In this document: positions 37,076 through 51,933 of the stretch, piece by piece | Numbering within the stretch: position 1 is the first letter of the stretch | How the letters are laid out: each line of letters starts with the position of its first letter | Source of the DNA: Promethearchaeota archaeon | GTDB taxonomy: Archaea > Asgardarchaeota > Lokiarchaeia > Sigyniarchaeales > SOKP01 | Direction of reading: 5' to 3' | Assembly (NCBI GenBank): GCA_016926735.1 | Contig: JAFGOA010000063.1 | Coordinates: forward strand, 1 to 64,000 | DNA length: 64,000 bases | Notes under the pieces: generated by a model | Databases searched by the model: none | What the model was told of the DNA's origin: nothing | Seen by the model: only the letters and a program-made list of their open reading frames with translations | Position numbers and translations under genes: made by a program

Positions 37076-38914
37076 ATGGAAAAAGAACAAGAAAGACCTT
37101 ATGGATATATATATAAAGTAATAAATTGCATTAATGGAAAAGTGTACATAGGTCAAACGGTTAGTAGTCGTTGGTCTGCAAATAAAATTCCTATTGAAGA
37201 AAGATGGAATGAGGAAATTAGAGAAGCATATAATAAGTATAGAAATGGAAAATCACTTCGTTATATTGAAAGAGCTATTATTAAATATGGACCTGAAAAT
37301 ATGAATCTTTTTGAACAAGATATAGCATATAAAAATCAAAAAGAGCTGGATGATAAGGAGATTTTTTGGGTAAAAGAGTGCAAATCATCTAATAAAGAGT
37401 TTGGATATAATTCAACTGAGGGTGGAATGGGAGGAAAATTAAATGATGATGTAAAGGAAAAATTAAGTCAGATTAGTAAAGAATTTTGGAGTGATCCAGA
37501 ATACCGTGAAAAATTAACTCAGATTAATAGAGAAAGATGGAATGATCCAGAATATAGAGAAAAAGTCATCCAAGGTATGAAAGAGAGTTGGACTGATGAA
37601 CGAATAGAGAAAAAACGGGAAGAATTATTAGAAAAATGGCAAGATCCAGATTTTAGAAAACTAAGAACAGAAATAAATAGAGAAATTGGTCAAAGACCAG
37701 AATTTAAAGAAAAAATAAGCGAAATTTCTAAAGAGCTTTGGCAAGATCCAGATTATCGAGAAAAACAATGTAAGATAAATAAAGAGCGTTGGCAAGATCC
37801 AGAATTTCGAGAAAAACAGATAAATGAAAGAATACAACGGCAAAAAGATCCAGAATATCGAGAAAGAGTAAGTAATACAATGAAAAAAGTTTGGGAAGAT
37901 CCTAAATATAGAAAGAAGCAAAGTAAAATAAATCGAGAGAGATGGGAAGACCCAGAATATAAAGAAAAACAAAGAAAAATAATAAAAAAAAGATGGCAAG
38001 ATCCAGAATTTAGAGATAAATCTATAAAAATAAGACAAGAATATGGTAATACACCTGAATATAAGGAAAAAATGAGTGATATTGTTAAGGAACGTTGGAA
38101 AGACAATGAGTATCAAGAAAAAGTAAGGAAAGGTATGGAAAAAAAATGGCAAGATCCAAAATATCAAGATAAAATGAGTAAAATTCATAAAAATAAATGG
38201 AATGATCCAGAATATCGAGAAAAACAATTAAAAGCAAGACAACAAAAAAGAAAAGAAATTCCTGATAAATATCAATTTTTTAAAGATATTTTAAATATGA
38301 AATATAAAGATATTTCTTCCAAATATAAAATGGGCAGTACCGCCTTTACCAAGAGAATTAAGGAGACCCTAGGTGATTTTGGAGGTAAGAACTACACAAC
38401 AGCAAAGGAAATTTTAAAGGACAAAGATCTTGATGAGTTTATAAAGCAAATCGAAAATAAAGATAAAAAGATTAAAGCTCAAGATCAATCCAAAGAAAAG
38501 AATTCTAAAATTCAAGAGGATAAGAATTTTAAAGAAAAAGGTAAAGAGAAAGAAAAGAAGACAGAATCGATCCAAGATTCTAAAGAGAAACTCCAAAAAG
38601 TTGAAAAACGCTCTGATTCTAAATCTTCGATGAGCAAAGACTTGAAGCATCTAACCACCAGACCTCCTCGAAAGCGACCATTAATACAAGATTTTTTATT
38701 CATTAAACCCCCAGAGAAAAAAAGTGATTTTTTAGGGATAACAATGGCTTCAAAACCTCACAAAGATGATCTGAGAGGACTAATTCTAAATCGAGATAAG
38801 AAAGGAGATGATCTTAAGCGATTACAAATCACTAGTGAAAAATCTCAACCTAAGAATCCTGATATTATTCTAGCAGATAAAATAAAGAAAAAGCGTAAGA
38901 CTCATGAATTATAA
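37076..38914 (+). CDS. GIY-YIG nuclease with 15 WxDPEYREK repeats (homing-endonuclease-like)
   Basis: A 612-residue protein. Residues 7-120 are a GIY-YIG nuclease domain: YGYIYKVINCINGKVYIGQT, an Arg in the IEERW helix region, and a late Glu in KEIFWVKE. Residues 140-400 contain about 15 tandem units of 18-19 residues with the consensus (K/R)WQDPEYREK followed by a basic helix. This resembles the NUMOD3-type DNA-binding repeats of GIY-YIG homing endonucleases but is far longer than usual. Next come a helix-turn-helix-like segment (YKDISSKYKMGSTAFTKRIKETLG) and a very charged tail with PPRKRPLIQDF. It is probably a mobile, self-propagating nuclease with a solenoid DNA-binding arm. It lies just before the HerA gene. 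Confidence 0.8.
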   Translation: MEKEQERPYGYIYKVINCINGKVYIGQTVSSRWSANKIPIEERWNEEIREAYNKYRNGKSLRYIERAIIKYGPENMNLFEQDIAYKNQKELDDKEIFWVKECKSSNKEFGYNSTEGGMGGKLNDDVKEKLSQISKEFWSDPEYREKLTQINRERWNDPEYREKVIQGMKESWTDERIEKKREELLEKWQDPDFRKLRTEINREIGQRPEFKEKISEISKELWQDPDYREKQCKINKERWQDPEFREKQINERIQRQKDPEYRERVSNTMKKVWEDPKYRKKQSKINRERWEDPEYKEKQRKIIKKRWQDPEFRDKSIKIRQEYGNTPEYKEKMSDIVKERWKDNEYQEKVRKGMEKKWQDPKYQDKMSKIHKNKWNDPEYREKQLKARQQKRKEIPDKYQFFKDILNMKYKDISSKYKMGSTAFTKRIKETLGDFGGKNYTTAKEILKDKDLDEFIKQIENKDKKIKAQDQSKEKNSKIQEDKNFKEKGKEKEKKTESIQDSKEKLQKVEKRSDSKSSMSKDLKHLTTRPPRKRPLIQDFLFIKPPEKKSDFLGITMASKPHKDDLRGLILNRDKKGDDLKRLQITSEKSQPKNPDIILADKIKKKRKTHEL

Positions 38915-41000: not shown

Positions 41001-41248
41001 ATCTCAATATCATTAATTGAAAACAACTTAAATTAAAATTATATAGGTAATTTCTAAATTTTCATATCCCAATTATATACAACAACAAATAGAATATGAT
41101 TATTGTTGATCTTAAAAAATCTGGAAAATGGTAATAAATAAATAAGAGTTTGAGTATTAGAAATTTGGACGAATTAATGCATAAAAACTAAATAAAGTTG
41201 TTTTTTTCAACCAATAAAGACAAAAATTAAAAAAGAGGTATTCAAACT

Positions 41249-42007
41249 ATTAATTTCACAAAAGGAAATTATTGGTTTAAGTGGGATTTTCATTGTCATA
41301 TGCCTGATGATCCAAATTGGAGTTTTTCTTCATCTTCACCTATATCTAAAAAAGATTTTGCAAAGAAATTTATAAATAAAGCTAAAGAGAATGAATTTGA
41401 ACTTATAGCTATAACTGATCATTTTAATTATCAAGATTATAAAGATAGTTATATGGCTTATATATATAACAGTGTAAAAAAAGAAATCTTAAAAATTATT
41501 CTTGGATGAGAGATAACTGCTAGGGAGGGACGTAAAGGCATTCATATCCTTGTGCTTTTCTCAGATAAAATCTCTAATAATTCAAATGAATTATTTGATA
41601 TTATTGGCAGAATAATGAATAAATCACATTCAGCTCGCAATGAAACAAGAAGCAGGGATATTCCTATATCCAAAAATAATATTGAAGAGATTTATAATAC
41701 TCTTAATGAACAGTTACCATCTAATCATTTTTTAATTATTTTCGCACATGTAGATAGTAACAAAGGGATACTTAATCAACATGATCTAGAAGGAACTTTA
41801 AGAAAAGAAAAATGGAATAAATCTAAAATAAAAGTAGCTCAATGGACAAAAGATTCTTTTTCTTATAGTTCTGGAATTTTAGATAATATTGGAAAGAATA
41901 TCAGTAATGACTATCAGAAAAAAATCCATGATGTAGGTTTTGATTGTAAAATGGTAGTTTTTGATTTTAATAATATGAATTTGTTATTATTGATATTTAG
42001 CTCATAA
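41249..42007 (+). pseudogene. PHP-domain protein (TrlF-type N-terminal domain) with in-frame TGA
   Basis: The frame is open from 41231 to 42007 except for one TGA at 41507-41509. Before it are KWDFHCHMPDDP (the first metal motif DFHxH of PHP phosphoesterases) and LIAITDHFNY (second motif). After it are EITAREGRKGIHILVLF and FLIIFAHVDSNKGIL, the next two PHP motifs. No ATG, GTG or TTG precedes DFHCH, but GAGGT at 41235-41239 lies 9 nt before ATT 41249, which I take as the start. PHP domains of this type usually head long SMC-like ATPases (TrlF group); here the frame stops after about 250 codons with no ATPase, so the gene is also truncated. The TGA is most likely a nonsense mutation. Confidence 0.7.
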
Positions 42008-43406: not shown

Positions 43407-44615
43407 ATGGAGTTTAAAAAAGAAATTGATAACATAGATATTGAAAATTATCGAGCAATAGAAAAACTAAGCTTTTCAACAAAAAAAATAAATATTATTG
43501 TAGGTCGAAATAATACGGGAAAAACATCCTTAATGGATGCAATTTATTTAGGATTATTAAATATTAATTCTTTTGAGAATATCAGGAAGAAAGATTTTAA
43601 TTTTCCATTAAATAATCTTATTTATAAGAATAGAAAGCAAGCGAAAATTCTACTTGGGATTAATCATGAAAATAGAAAAATGACTTTTGAAACTATAATA
43701 GATTTTAAGAAACATATTCCAAAAGATCGTGAATTTAGATCTTTTTTATATCGGGAAAGGGAAGAAATTTTAGAAGATGAACTGAATAAAATTAAAGAAA
43801 AAATGAAATCACTTGATATTCCTGTAAATAAAAGAATGTTATTTGAAGAAGATTATGATTTGAGAAAGGCGGAGATTATTAATGATATTGAGATATCTTT
43901 TGATGAATCCTATTCTAACACTTTATTTTTTACATTGTTAATGAATAAAAATCCAATCTCAAAGTATGTATATAATAAAGAATACAAGAATAGATCTTTT
44001 TATTTTGGTCTAAATCCCTTTCAGAATATTGTAATCTATGAACTACTTCATGAACGAGTAAAATTTTTATTTAATATGATAGATCAAAGAAAAGTAAATC
44101 CAAAAGATAATTTTAAGAGAATACTTAATTCAAAAGATATATTTATTTTTTTGGAAGTATTGAAGGATAAATTTCCAAATATATATGACATTCGAAATAT
44201 CGATGACAATGTTAATATTGTTCTCTTAGATAATGATAATGAGAAAATTTTAATTCCTCTTGAATTAATGGGAGATGGTTTTAAATCATTATTATATTCA
44301 TATACGTTATTCTATATTTTTTCAGAAGGAATTTTATTGTTTGAAGAACCTGAAATATCATTACATCCTGGATATATGGAAATATTAGCAGAATTAATAT
44401 TGTCAAACATAAATAATTATCAATTTTTTTTTACAACCCATAGTTTAGATTTTATCGAAGCAATTATAAAGATAGCTAAGAAGGAAGATAAACTAAAATT
44501 TATTCAAATTATTAGACTTACCAATAAAAATGCCGTTGTTGATAGAGAAATTCTAAATGAAAATGAAATTTTAGACGAATTAGAGGAAATTAAAATCGAT
44601 TTAAGAGGGTATTGA
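43407..44615 (+). CDS. OLD-like AAA ATPase
   Basis: A 402-residue ABC-type ATPase of the OLD/AAA_15/AAA_21 group. Seen: an N-terminal strand pair (IDIENYRAIEKLSF), Walker A VGRNNTGKTSLMDAI, a helical insertion (residues 100-250), signature-like LMGDGFKSLL, Walker B GILLFEEPEISLHPGYMEIL and H-loop FFFTTHSLDF. There is no C-terminal TOPRIM domain. The next gene, starting one base after the stop, supplies a TOPRIM-like protein, so together they make a split OLD-type system. OLD-family enzymes act in anti-phage defence and DNA processing. The 730 bp before it are empty, so it has its own promoter. Confidence 0.85.
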   Translation: MEFKKEIDNIDIENYRAIEKLSFSTKKINIIVGRNNTGKTSLMDAIYLGLLNINSFENIRKKDFNFPLNNLIYKNRKQAKILLGINHENRKMTFETIIDFKKHIPKDREFRSFLYREREEILEDELNKIKEKMKSLDIPVNKRMLFEEDYDLRKAEIINDIEISFDESYSNTLFFTLLMNKNPISKYVYNKEYKNRSFYFGLNPFQNIVIYELLHERVKFLFNMIDQRKVNPKDNFKRILNSKDIFIFLEVLKDKFPNIYDIRNIDDNVNIVLLDNDNEKILIPLELMGDGFKSLLYSYTLFYIFSEGILLFEEPEISLHPGYMEILAELILSNINNYQFFFTTHSLDFIEAIIKIAKKEDKLKFIQIIRLTNKNAVVDREILNENEILDELEEIKIDLRGY

Positions 44616-44616
44616 G

Positions 44617-45306
44617 ATTCTTGTAATTTTAGGAGAAGGTAAATTCGATTCTTGGTTTTTTGATGAACTTCTTTCGAATTTATCTCAAGAAAATGAAAAT
44701 ATCTTAAATATAAAAACAGATTATGGAGATAAGTTCAGTAGTTTATTTAATTGTCTTGCGAGGAATTGCACAAAAAATTCTTATTATAAGAGTATTATAT
44801 GGGGTGATAAAGGAAGACAATTTATGTTATTAAAAGTATATCCTAAAGTATTAGGTTTTATTATAAGACATGTGAGGAAAAATTCATTGTTAATCTTATG
44901 TGAAGATAGTGATAATAGAAATACAGAACAACTTTATAATAATTGGAAAGATAATACTGAGAATTTTCTCTTTAATCCTAATAATTTTCAAAAATGTATT
45001 GATTTTAATATTATTTCAAACTCTAATATAAACATAGATATTGGTTCTAATAATTTGTTATCTTCATGTTATCATTATATTCCTAAAAGTTTAGAATATC
45101 AAATCGCATACATCAATATGATAGAAAATAATCTGAATATTCCTAATAATATTCAAAATAACCATCATGATTTTTTAAATAAAGTTGTAGAATTATTAGA
45201 TCAGAATCATGAAACATTAATTAGAAATTCAGTAAATTTACTTAGAGGAAAACAATGGTTAGTTCATATCTCTAATTCTATAATGAATTTTATATCTGAG
45301 ATTTAA
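44617..45306 (+). CDS. TOPRIM-like partner of the OLD ATPase, ATT start
   Basis: A protein of about 229 residues. The frame is open from a TAA at 44602, and no ATG, GTG or TTG occurs before the conserved N-terminal motif; the first ATG (44824) would remove 69 residues. GAGGG at 44605-44609 lies 7 nt before ATT 44617, taken as the start. Seen: LVILGEGKFDSWFFDELL, matching the first strand and Glu of TOPRIM/DUF3226 (VEGKxD), and LLILCEDSDNRNTEQLY, matching the DxD motif. The rest is helical and may be a HEPN-like or dimerisation region. It would be the nuclease half of a two-gene OLD-type defence system. Confidence 0.7.
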   Translation: MLVILGEGKFDSWFFDELLSNLSQENENILNIKTDYGDKFSSLFNCLARNCTKNSYYKSIIWGDKGRQFMLLKVYPKVLGFIIRHVRKNSLLILCEDSDNRNTEQLYNNWKDNTENFLFNPNNFQKCIDFNIISNSNINIDIGSNNLLSSCYHYIPKSLEYQIAYINMIENNLNIPNNIQNNHHDFLNKVVELLDQNHETLIRNSVNLLRGKQWLVHISNSIMNFISEI

Positions 45307-45781
45307 TCAATAAAGCTTTTCAATTGATATTAAAATTTTATTATTTTATACTTGTATAGTTATAATTCAAATAAAAGTCTAAAACATAGTTCTATATATT
45401 CTAAGAAAAATAATATTTGCTTCTTTTCAGTGATATTTCAAATTAATATAAATTGGTTGTTATAAAAACTACTAAAATAATATAATTATGTGATTTCTGT
45501 TGACATGGAGGGTAAATTTAAGTTTTTAAATAATTGTTAAGATTGTTATAAGAACTATAAAGGTATAGAGGACTTTAATTTTATAAATTTCTTTTATCAT
45601 GGATATTAAAATTCTTTAATAAACAATATAATAGAATATATTGAATTTTATATGATAATCAAAAATTATAAAAATACAGAATTTTTATTATTAATTAAAC
45701 ACTAAAAATTTACTTTTTTAAAAGAGGTTTTTTTGTCTTTTTAAAAAGGGATCTTTTGTCTTATTTTAAATTTAAAAGTAG
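45307..45781. other. Intergenic region before the four-gene cassette
   Basis: About 475 A/T-rich bases. Just before the cassette lies an imperfect direct repeat of TTTTTGTCTT (45729-45738) and TTTTGTCTTA (45753-45762), which may be a regulatory or transcription-stop element. A weak coding-like stretch at 45505-45609 is interrupted by a stop. No RNA gene is seen. Confidence 0.35.
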
Positions 45782-46204
45782 GTGATTAAAATAGAAGTAA
45801 ACCAGTCAGATGATGTAAATTCAAAAATATTAGATATGGGTGTGTTAGAAGAATTATTTGTTAGTGATAAAACGGCACGAACAATTGAATTCTTTATTCT
45901 TCATGAAAAATGGATTCAGAATAAAAAAGAATTAATGGAAATTTTAGATATCTATCCTGAAGCTATGAAAGAGATATTAGAAAGATTAGTAAAATTAGAC
46001 ATAATTGAGGTCGATAAAAAGATAGCAAGTTCAAAATTCTATAAAGTTAATAAAAAATCAAATTTAATAATACCATTAAGAACTTTAATTCATAATTTAA
46101 GTTTAAATAGAGCATTATTGATGATAGACGAGAATAAAAATGTTATAAAAGAAAAAGAATTAGAATCAAACATAAGGAGTTATGTAAATCAAGATGATGA
46201 ATAA
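45782..46204 (+). CDS. Winged-helix protein, first gene of unknown cassette
   Basis: A 140-residue protein with a winged helix at residues 25-100: KTARTIEFFILHEKWIQNKKELMEIL, then a recognition helix (PEAMKEILERLVKLDIIEV) and a wing with KFYKVNKK. Probably a DNA-binding regulator, perhaps of the cassette itself. The start is GTG 45782, and a start further in (ATA 45791) after AGGTGA is possible. It overlaps the next gene by 11 bp. Confidence 0.65.
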   Translation: MIKIEVNQSDDVNSKILDMGVLEELFVSDKTARTIEFFILHEKWIQNKKELMEILDIYPEAMKEILERLVKLDIIEVDKKIASSKFYKVNKKSNLIIPLRTLIHNLSLNRALLMIDENKNVIKEKELESNIRSYVNQDDE

Positions 46205-46892
46205 AGATAATTTTAATAATCTTTTTATAATTCAGGAAATTGGGAATTTTCCTACAATTATAAAAAGAAAGGATGAATTACTAAGAGAAATTGAGGAAGA
46301 AAGGAGTTATAATCTTTTATCAAGAGAAAATTTTTCAATTAAAGATTTAGATAATTTAAATAAATATATAAAAATAAATAATTTAGAAAAAAAAGAGATC
46401 TTTGAAGATCTAACAGAATCTGAATCTGAATTTATTGGTTTTATTTTAAAAGATAGAATAAAAAAAGAACTGAGAATTAAAATCAGAATCGATCTTGGAA
46501 AATATCATATATTTATTTTCCCTGAATGCCCCTCAAATTTAGTATATCGAAGTTTTTTATTACTAACATCTGACTTAGAAACATTTGAAAAAGATTTAAT
46601 AGATTATTTAGGTTTTAAAGAAAAAACAAAAGACTTTACATTTCTTCAAACAAAAAAAATTATTCATTTGTATATGAAAATCAAAAATGAAAATGAAATT
46701 ATAGATAAATTTCTGAACACATTTGCAAGTAAAGAAAGATTCCAAAATATTATTATACTCAATAATAAACTTTCTAAAGATAGTAGACGTATTTTAATAG
46801 GAGAAAAAACAAATTATCTTTCAAGTATAGGAAATATTTTTGATTTAGACTATATATTGAATATTAAAGAATATTTAAGAAGATTTATTTAG
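46194..46892 (+). CDS. Unknown protein, second gene of cassette
   Basis: A 232-residue protein I do not recognise. It has no signal peptide, TM helix or cysteine cluster. Residues 95-115 (RIKKELRIKIRIDLGKYHIFIFPECP) and the later alternation of strands and helices suggest an alpha/beta fold with a UBC- or RWD-like start (strand-strand-FxFPxxxP), but that is a weak guess. The 11-bp overlap with the preceding winged-helix gene shows co-translation. Confidence 0.6.
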   Translation: MMNKDNFNNLFIIQEIGNFPTIIKRKDELLREIEEERSYNLLSRENFSIKDLDNLNKYIKINNLEKKEIFEDLTESESEFIGFILKDRIKKELRIKIRIDLGKYHIFIFPECPSNLVYRSFLLLTSDLETFEKDLIDYLGFKEKTKDFTFLQTKKIIHLYMKIKNENEIIDKFLNTFASKERFQNIIILNNKLSKDSRRILIGEKTNYLSSIGNIFDLDYILNIKEYLRRFI

Positions 46893-46894
46893 AG

Positions 46895-47239
46895 GTGTTA
46901 GATATTTCTGATTGTAAGTTAAATTTTTATGATTTTTTTTTACTTCGAAAAATAACAACATATAAATACATAGGAGGGCACAAAACTAAATTGTCTCATA
47001 TTGTACGAGGTATAGAAAGAAGTGATGTAGGATATGTAAAAAGGGCTTTTAAAAAATTTCTGAAAATGGGTTTTTTTGAATCAGAAATGAGAAATAGAGA
47101 TTATTATTTTTCATTAAAAAGAGAATATATTAAACGTGTTTTTGAATTAATAGAGAAAAATAGTTGTCCCTATTGTTCAGATTATTTAAAAAAAAAAGAT
47201 TTTTGTAATTATTGTAAAAAAGAAATTTCACAAGAATAA
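46895..47239 (+). CDS. Winged-helix plus zinc-ribbon protein, third gene of cassette
   Basis: A 114-residue protein (GTG 46895) or 111 residues if it starts at ATT 46904, which has GAGGTG 6 nt upstream and is the better-spaced start. The first 85 residues form a winged helix (KLSHIVRGIERSDVGYVKRAFKKFLKMGFFESE and a wing NRDYYFSLKR). A C-terminal zinc ribbon CPYCSDYLKKKDFCNYC follows. The combination suggests nucleic-acid binding. It starts 2 bp after the previous gene. Confidence 0.62.
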   Translation: MLDISDCKLNFYDFFLLRKITTYKYIGGHKTKLSHIVRGIERSDVGYVKRAFKKFLKMGFFESEMRNRDYYFSLKREYIKRVFELIEKNSCPYCSDYLKKKDFCNYCKKEISQE

Positions 47240-47270
47240 TATATATCATAACCTTTTTTATATATTAAAG

Positions 47271-47870
47271 ATGTCATCAGAAGGCAATTTTAAAACACTA
47301 AGATTATTTGTTGAGAAAAGTCTCGCAAAAAAGATATTACTTACTCGATATTTAGAATTTATTTTAATTAGTTTTCTCGAATTAAAGAATTTAGAAATAA
47401 TAAAAATACGTCCATTTTATAAGACTTTTATAATTATATTTTTTCGGAATTTTATACAAAATGATAACCTAAAGCAGAATTTAAATAAATTTCTTATCGA
47501 TAATCCTATGATGGATAAATTCTTAAAAGAAAATAATATGGATTATTCAATACTTATTTTGGATTTTGAATATGAATTTAATTTTTGTGAAGAATTTCTT
47601 GGTGAAGATAATATTACTTTTAATTCAAAAGTTTTTTTATCTAAATTAAACGATTATATTGAGCAAAATCGCCAGGAAGTAAGACATTTAATAAATTTTC
47701 GTGATATTTTGGCTGAAAAAATAGAGTACGTAGGAAAATGTATTATTTGCGAAAAAAAGACACTATATAAATGTAAGAAATGTAACCAAAGCACGTGTGA
47801 AAATCATTTAAATAAAGGTTATTGTGATAATTGTGCTGATAAAATATTGGAAGAATATGATTCAAAATAA
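47271..47870 (+). CDS. Protein with C-terminal B-box/HIT-like zinc finger, fourth gene of cassette
   Basis: A 199-residue protein. The N-terminal 150 residues are alpha/beta with hydrophobic strands and no recognised motif (FYKTFIIIFFRNFI, SILILDFEYEFNF). The C-terminus contains CIICEKKTLYKCKKCNQSTCENHLNKGYCDNC, an arrangement of seven cysteines and a histidine as in B-box, AN1 or HIT zinc fingers, which are protein- or RNA-interaction modules common in eukaryotes. It is the last gene of the cassette, followed by the convergent HEPN gene 52 bp later. Confidence 0.62.
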   Translation: MSSEGNFKTLRLFVEKSLAKKILLTRYLEFILISFLELKNLEIIKIRPFYKTFIIIFFRNFIQNDNLKQNLNKFLIDNPMMDKFLKENNMDYSILILDFEYEFNFCEEFLGEDNITFNSKVFLSKLNDYIEQNRQEVRHLINFRDILAEKIEYVGKCIICEKKTLYKCKKCNQSTCENHLNKGYCDNCADKILEEYDSK

Positions 47871-51225: not shown

Positions 51226-51868
51226 TTAAAGTTTAGGAAAGATAAAAATAATCTCTTCATAACCTTTAATCTTTCCATCTTTCAGAGAATACTATTTTAT
51301 CACCGGATTTATTAATAATCTATAATTTCGGGTCCTGATAAAAAATCTTGATTGAAGTTTTAATTAAATAATTAGATACTGGATCTTCCATTCCTTCTAA
51401 TGCTTGTATTATTGATTTTTCTTCTAATGAAATATATTCGTTAGTTTTAAAAATATCCTTAATTCTATGAAATATCCTTATTATTGCGTTCCGATCTTCA
51501 TATTTAAATTCTTTATAATTACAAATTAAATGTCTTGCTAAATCATTTGAGTTCTTTATTTTCCAGATTTCCTTTTCTTTTTTTGATTCTCTATTTATTT
51601 TTCTCTCTTTTTTTTCTAAATTGTTTCGAAATTTAAAGAAAGTTCCTTCTCTTATAATCGTCTTAACTATTATGTTCTGTTTCTCAAACCATTCTTTGTT
51701 GTCTTCGAGTATCTTTCTATATTTCCAATTATTTCTGAGGGTAGGATCATCTGGAATATAATTTTCGATTTCATTTAGAAATTTTTCCTCTGTTTCAGTT
51801 CCATAAAATTGGATTTTAATATATGCTCGTACTGAATCTATATATGAAGTGATAGATTTTTTTTTTAT
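51226..51868 (-). pseudogene. Decayed gene without a usable start codon
   Basis: On the - strand, 51868 to 51320 is an open stretch of about 183 codons with strongly protein-like content (IQFYGTETEEKFLNEIEN, RNNWKYRKILEDNKEWFEK, LARHLICNYKEFKYEDRN). The only ATG lies near the end, and no GTG or TTG precedes it. A 10-A run sits at its 5' edge. After a TAG at 51320, the same frame continues coding-like (INKSGDKIVFSERWKD) to a TAA, and a shift of one base then gives IKGYEEIIFIFPKL and a stop at 51226. These breaks mark a pseudogene that was once about 215 residues, or longer upstream. The family is not recognised. It follows the restriction-modification gene on the same strand and may have been its partner. 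Confidence 0.6.
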
Positions 51869-51933
51869 TCTTTAAAAGATTTTAAATAAAAAAACCAATA
51901 AATAAAATAAAAATATATGAATCCCGATTCTAA

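What the first reader, a model, noticed from the sequence alone, without database searches (positions are those of the whole stretch)
45782..47870. Unrecognised four-gene cassette in the defence island
Four tightly packed genes (overlap 11 bp, gaps 2 and 31 bp) encode a winged-helix protein, an unknown alpha/beta protein, a winged-helix/zinc-ribbon protein and a protein with a B-box/HIT-like zinc finger. None matches a family I know. Their place between an OLD-type pair and HEPN effectors suggests defence or a mobile element. This and the adjacent HEPN genes are the best candidates for an undescribed system.
Basis: partly seen in the sequence, partly recalled or inferred. Interest (0 to 1): 0.68.

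Follow-up and report, generated by a model that had tools for sequence, protein, structure and literature searches.

The report
Orphan four-gene operon in an Asgard
Four real, tightly packed genes sit among likely antiviral genes in an Asgard archaeon, two of them probable DNA-binding proteins, but no copy of the set was found in any other genome searched, so nothing beyond their position yet says that they form a defence system.

Summary
In detail: four co-oriented ORFs (140, 232, 114, 199 codons) lie at the stated coordinates with an 11-bp overlap and 2- and 31-bp gaps. Codon statistics favour the annotated frame in each, and they are longer than shuffles of the same DNA give. None matches Pfam, NCBIfam or PHROGs convincingly.

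Gene 1 is an ordinary archaeal winged-helix regulator; its PADLOC hit (PDC-M05A) covers only a winged helix. Gene 3 has a CxxC-x9-CxxC ribbon and a probable winged helix. Gene 4 ends in an eight-ligand finger (C4-C-H-C2) that also occurs in unrelated small Asgard proteins. Gene 2 is an orphan.

I tested whether genes 1 and 3 are a diverged copy of an archaea-wide divergent winged-helix pair. A control against other Asgard winged helices showed the match is not specific.

No copy of genes 2 or 4 exists in 228 Asgard genomes; none of the four was found in viral contigs, nor those tested in phages or plasmids, so co-occurrence cannot be tested. The neighbouring AAA/effector pair recurs once elsewhere without the cassette. 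Structure models are too poor to use (pLDDT 35-39). Best reading: a one-genome accessory operon, probably of mobile origin, with its own regulator. Defence is possible but unsupported.

The parts
45713..45770 (.). AT-rich direct repeat, 2.4 copies of 23-24 bp, just upstream of gene 1; possible promoter/operator
   Evidence: Tandem Repeats Finder score 77; but 27 of 200 shuffles of the upstream DNA give an equal or better repeat, so marginal
45782..46204 (+). gene 1: 140-aa winged-helix protein, probable transcriptional regulator (start uncertain: GTG 45782 or a downstream codon)
   Evidence: similar to archaeal winged helices; PADLOC PDC-M05A hit E 3.6e-4 over residues 21-104 only
46194..46892 (+). 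gene 2: 232-aa orphan protein
   Evidence: no Pfam, PADLOC or NCBIfam hit with E up to 1 and only E 0.74 in PHROGs; no convincing relative in 228 Asgard genomes, viral contigs, phages or plasmids; AlphaFold2 pLDDT 35
46895..47239 (+). gene 3: 114-aa probable winged helix with C-terminal zinc ribbon C91-x2-C94-x9-C104-x2-C107
   Evidence: collinear but unspecific 9.4-bit match to a 92-position archaeal winged-helix profile
47165..47215 (+). zinc-ribbon coding part of gene 3
   Evidence: sequence
47271..47870 (+). gene 4: 199-aa protein, orphan N-terminal ~155 residues plus C-terminal zinc finger
   Evidence: relatives found only for the finger; AlphaFold2 pLDDT 38.5
47739..47834 (+). zinc finger of gene 4: C157-x2-C160-x7-C168-x2-C171-x4-C176-x2-H179-x5-C185-x2-C188
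   Evidence: sequence; same pattern in short, otherwise unrelated proteins L002 and L004

Best explanation
The four genes are one transcription unit that occurs in this genome only, as far as could be searched: a fast-evolving or recently gained accessory operon, most likely of mobile-element origin, in a very AT-rich stretch that also holds defence genes. Gene 1 most likely binds DNA through its winged helix and controls its own operon. Gene 3 is probably a second, zinc-stabilised winged-helix protein. Genes 2 and 4 are the cargo, gene 4 meeting a partner protein or nucleic acid through its zinc finger. Shown: the genes, their packing, the winged helix of gene 1, the cysteine patterns, the absence of relatives. 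Inferred: co-transcription, autoregulation, mobile origin, and any role of genes 2 and 4.
For: Tight co-oriented packing and coding signal. Winged helix of gene 1: 40.5 bits to a profile from 66 archaeal proteins, shuffles at most 10.5. Zinc ligands in genes 3 and 4. GC of 20-23% in genes 1-4 against about 27-31% in most housekeeping genes of the window, and 21% for the 42-50 kb stretch. No relatives of genes 2 and 4 in 228 Asgard genomes nor of genes 1-4 in 97 relatives beyond domain-level hits. The adjoining AAA/effector pair is an independent two-gene unit, present in genome G055 without the cassette.
Against: No integrase, tRNA, terminal repeat, capsid or replication gene was recognised at the cassette's ends, and none of the four has a viral or plasmid relative, so mobile origin is inferred from orphan status and composition only. 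The empty site could not be shown: of the two flanking genes tried, neither was found in the same-genus genome. Neighbouring defence genes have the same low GC, so composition does not separate mobile element from defence.
Confidence: 0.5

Rival explanations
1. An undescribed four-gene antiviral system: gene 1 controls expression, genes 2-4 sense infection and act.
For: Position between an AAA ATPase/effector pair related in its ATPase to PDC-M38A, AbiLi and AriA and two HEPN-like genes, with a type IIG-like restriction-modification gene beyond; defence genes often cluster (established knowledge).
Against: No recurrence anywhere, so co-occurrence with defence genes cannot be shown; no nuclease, NTPase, nucleotidyltransferase or other effector or sensor domain recognised in any of the four; the PDC-M05A hit of gene 1 covers only a winged helix, not the nucleotidyltransferase that defines M05A.
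Confidence: 0.2
2. Genes 1 and 3 are a rearranged, highly diverged copy of an archaea-wide winged-helix pair (families A and B, normally divergent, about 60 bp apart), with two unrelated genes attached.
For: Families A and B lie together in 51 places, 50 on opposite strands, in many archaeal phyla; gene 1 matches A at 40.5 bits and gene 3 is the best of all window ORFs against B at 9.4 bits, collinear over the domain and above all 2000 shuffles; both similarities fall in one operon.
Against: Control: other Asgard winged helices score 41-89 bits against A and up to 11.4 bits against B, so neither match is specific. Arrangement differs (same strand, gene 2 between) and gene 3 has an extra zinc ribbon.
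Confidence: 0.2
3. Four unrelated genes placed side by side by chance, with no shared function.
For: No recurrence of the set; intervals elsewhere in this genome are short too; each domain found is generic.
Against: An 11-bp overlap and 2- and 31-bp gaps on one strand, similar composition, and a common setting.
Confidence: 0.1

Closest known systems
archaeal single-domain winged-helix regulators (Csa3 C-terminal domain, TrmB/ArsR-like; family A here)
   Same: gene 1 aligns over the whole winged helix and its C-terminal helix
   Different: longer, charged C-terminal tail; not next to a divergent family B gene
archaeal small winged-helix family B (about 90 aa, W-GG-xHT...DNL-KG motif; no Pfam or NCBIfam name)
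   Same: gene 3 is collinear with it and keeps a GGHKT-like motif
   Different: score not above other winged helices; gene 3 adds a C-terminal zinc ribbon
PDC-M05 (PADLOC candidate: nucleotidyltransferase plus HEPN)
   Same: gene 1 matches the winged-helix part of M05A
   Different: no nucleotidyltransferase; M05 is a nucleotidyltransferase/HEPN two-gene module (PMC12988326)
HIT-type / B-box zinc fingers
   Same: similar spacing of eight Cys/His ligands in gene 4
   Different: below the Pfam cutoffs (E 0.013-0.024); attached to an orphan domain
archaeal dark-matter islands (PMC4158269)
   Same: cluster of small, narrowly spread, fast-evolving genes in which winged-helix regulators and mobile or defence genes are common
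   Different: gene content not matched to any described island

Membership tests
PDC-M05 | M05A nucleotidyltransferase domain | tested here: not met
   hit limited to residues 21-104 of gene 1 = positions 7-88 of a 194-position model; no nucleotidyltransferase family found in Pfam
PDC-M05 | adjacent HEPN partner | tested here: inconclusive
   two large HEPN-like genes follow on either strand, but neither has a family match
archaeal winged-helix pair A/B | gene 1 specifically in family A | tested here: inconclusive
   40.5 bits, but other Asgard winged helices score 41-89 bits
archaeal winged-helix pair A/B | gene 3 specifically in family B | tested here: inconclusive
   9.4 bits, above 2000 shuffles but within the range of other winged helices, up to 11.4
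archaeal winged-helix pair A/B | divergent arrangement | tested here: not met
   genes 1 and 3 share a strand with gene 2 between; 50 of 51 A/B pairs are on opposite strands
RING finger (gene 4) | C3HC4 or C3H2C3 ligand order | tested here: not met
   order is C-C-C-C-C-H-C-C
UBC/RWD fold (gene 2) | fold or profile match | tested here: inconclusive
   no Pfam hit with E up to 1; model pLDDT 35, Foldseek nothing at E up to 0.001
antiviral defence system | recurrent association with defence genes | tested here: inconclusive
   a single occurrence; no second copy of genes 2 or 4 in 228 Asgard genomes
antiviral defence system | protection against a virus | not testable with these tools
   needs an experiment

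The most novel reading that the evidence does not exclude
An undescribed, Asgard-specific antiviral operon: a winged-helix switch, a zinc-ribbon winged helix and two proteins of unknown fold, one with a B-box/HIT-like finger as in eukaryotic immune adaptors.
Probability: 0.12. Interest if true: 0.6.

Novelty: new member of a known kind. Interest (0 to 1): 0.25.

Why it matters
If it were a defence operon it would add an Asgard-only system to a group whose immune genes are studied for links to eukaryotic immunity. As it stands it is one more island of archaeal dark matter: a real operon without relatives, worth rechecking when more genomes of this genus are available. The report also sets a caution: single-domain winged-helix hits, including the PADLOC one, do not by themselves mark defence.

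Tried and rejected
UBC/RWD reading of gene 2 and RING reading of gene 4: no profile support and wrong ligand order. Single-sequence AlphaFold2 models (pLDDT 35.1 and 38.5) and their Foldseek matches (none at E up to 0.001) discarded as uninformative. Weak gene 2 matches were opened in part: the own-genome C174 hit lies in an unrelated membrane-anchored protein, L011 and L013 in methyltransferase-like genes, and L008 and L055 show no related neighbours. Weak gene 3 matches were an acyltransferase-like protein, an RNA polymerase subunit and zinc-rich proteins. Gene 4 matches cover only the finger. The A/B pair idea for genes 1 and 3 looked good against shuffles but failed the specificity control; it is kept only as a rival. 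The query that found one family B locus was a consensus I recalled from memory; the family itself was then defined from fetched loci. Operator repeat upstream of gene 1: marginal (27 of 200 shuffles equal or better). Synteny: neither of two flanking genes was found in the same-genus genome. Rfam: nothing in 40-56 kb.

Full report
The window is contig C91 of an Asgard archaeon (G000, 3.9 Mb in 238 contigs). The four ORFs exist as described: 45782-46204, 46194-46892, 46895-47239 and 47271-47870, all on the + strand, with an 11-bp overlap and 2- and 31-bp gaps. They are more than chance: the open stretches (234, 226, 140, 123 codons) exceed 500 Markov shuffles as a set (longest: mean 74, maximum 147; fourth longest: maximum 72), and a codon model trained on other genes of the window prefers the annotated frame over the five others for each gene. 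GC is 20-23%, like the neighbouring defence-like genes and below most housekeeping genes of the window.

Gene 1 (140 aa) has no match above cutoff in Pfam or NCBIfam. PADLOC gives PDC-M05A at E 3.6e-4, but only over residues 21-104; M05A is a nucleotidyltransferase working with a HEPN protein (PMC12988326), and gene 1 has no such domain. Its best relative in 97 related genomes is a 129-aa winged helix in G071 (E 1.2e-5). That protein opened a family of archaeal winged helices (family A), which in 51 cases lies next to a second small winged helix (family B), 50 of them on opposite strands, most 10-140 bp apart, with no conserved further neighbour.

I then asked whether genes 1 and 3 might be a diverged A/B pair. 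Gene 1 scores 40.5 bits against a profile of 66 A proteins (2000 shuffles: at most 10.5). Gene 3 scores 9.4 bits against 50 B proteins, collinear over the domain, above 2000 shuffles (at most 8.7), and best of all window ORFs. A wider control changed the reading: other Asgard winged helices reach 41-89 bits against A and up to 11.4 bits against B. So gene 1 is firmly a winged helix of the general archaeal type, gene 3 probably one, and the pair hypothesis is open but unspecific.

Gene 3 (114 aa) ends in C91-x2-C94-x9-C104-x2-C107, a zinc ribbon. Gene 4 (199 aa) ends in C157-x2-C160-x7-C168-x2-C171-x4-C176-x2-H179-x5-C185-x2-C188; the order of ligands excludes a RING and fits a B-box/HIT-like cross-brace, in line with sub-threshold Pfam hits (E 0.013 and 0.024). 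The same pattern occurs in short, otherwise unrelated Asgard proteins (L002, L004). The first 155 residues of gene 4 and the whole of gene 2 (232 aa) have no convincing relative in 228 Asgard genomes, viral contigs, phages or plasmids. The scan of species genomes with gene 2 found nothing. These two collection scans find close relatives only. Structures predicted from single sequences are unusable (pLDDT 35.1 and 38.5), and Foldseek finds nothing at E up to 0.001.

Surroundings. Upstream lies an AAA_21/AAA_15 ATPase (43407-44615; best PADLOC models PDC-M38A, AbiLi, AriA) followed by a gene whose open frame begins at 44605, not 44824: 'ILGEGKFDSWFFDELL...'. A 41%-identical relative of that gene lies beside the same ATPase in genome G055, without the four genes, so the pair is a unit of its own. 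Downstream are two 498-aa genes with HEPN-like Rx4H motifs, without family matches, then a type IIG-like restriction-modification gene. No tRNA, Rfam family or strong terminal repeat frames the cassette, and two flanking genes tried as synteny anchors were absent from the same-genus genome.

Interpretation. The evidence supports a real operon, two probable DNA-binding proteins, two zinc-binding ones, and strict rarity. It does not separate a mobile-element operon from a defence operon. I favour an accessory operon of mobile origin controlled by gene 1 (0.5), with an undescribed defence system at about 0.2.

Noticed in passing
window 41237-42007 (+): A PHP-domain-like gene (WDFHCHMPDD...ITDHFN) with a single in-frame TGA at 41507-41509 (ILG*EITAREG) and a short 3' end: a decayed gene, or read-through.
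   Followed up: partly
window 44605-45306 (+): The effector of the AAA pair has a 233-codon open frame starting before the first ATG; the homologue in L062 is 210 aa, so the ORF at 44824 is truncated and the true start is probably a non-standard codon such as ATT after GAGGG.
   Followed up: partly
window 37076-38914 (+): A GIY-YIG-like nuclease with about a dozen 17-aa WxDPEYRE repeats (51-bp tandem arrays at 37457-38224), just beyond a thermosome gene.
   Followed up: no
L136 (genome G057) 212-1947: A divergent winged-helix A/B pair next to the start of a reverse transcriptase gene.
   Followed up: no
L069-L130: An unnamed two-gene divergent winged-helix pair (families A and B) is widespread in archaea, with no conserved neighbour and no Pfam or NCBIfam model for family B.
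   Followed up: partly
window 51323-51871 (-): An open frame of 183 codons without an early ATG, GTG or TTG, between a HEPN-like gene and the restriction-modification gene; possibly a gene remnant.
   Followed up: no
window 45782 and 46895: The GTG starts of genes 1 and 3 overlap ribosome-binding-site-like GGTG/GAGGTG, suggesting downstream, perhaps non-standard, start codons.
   Followed up: partly
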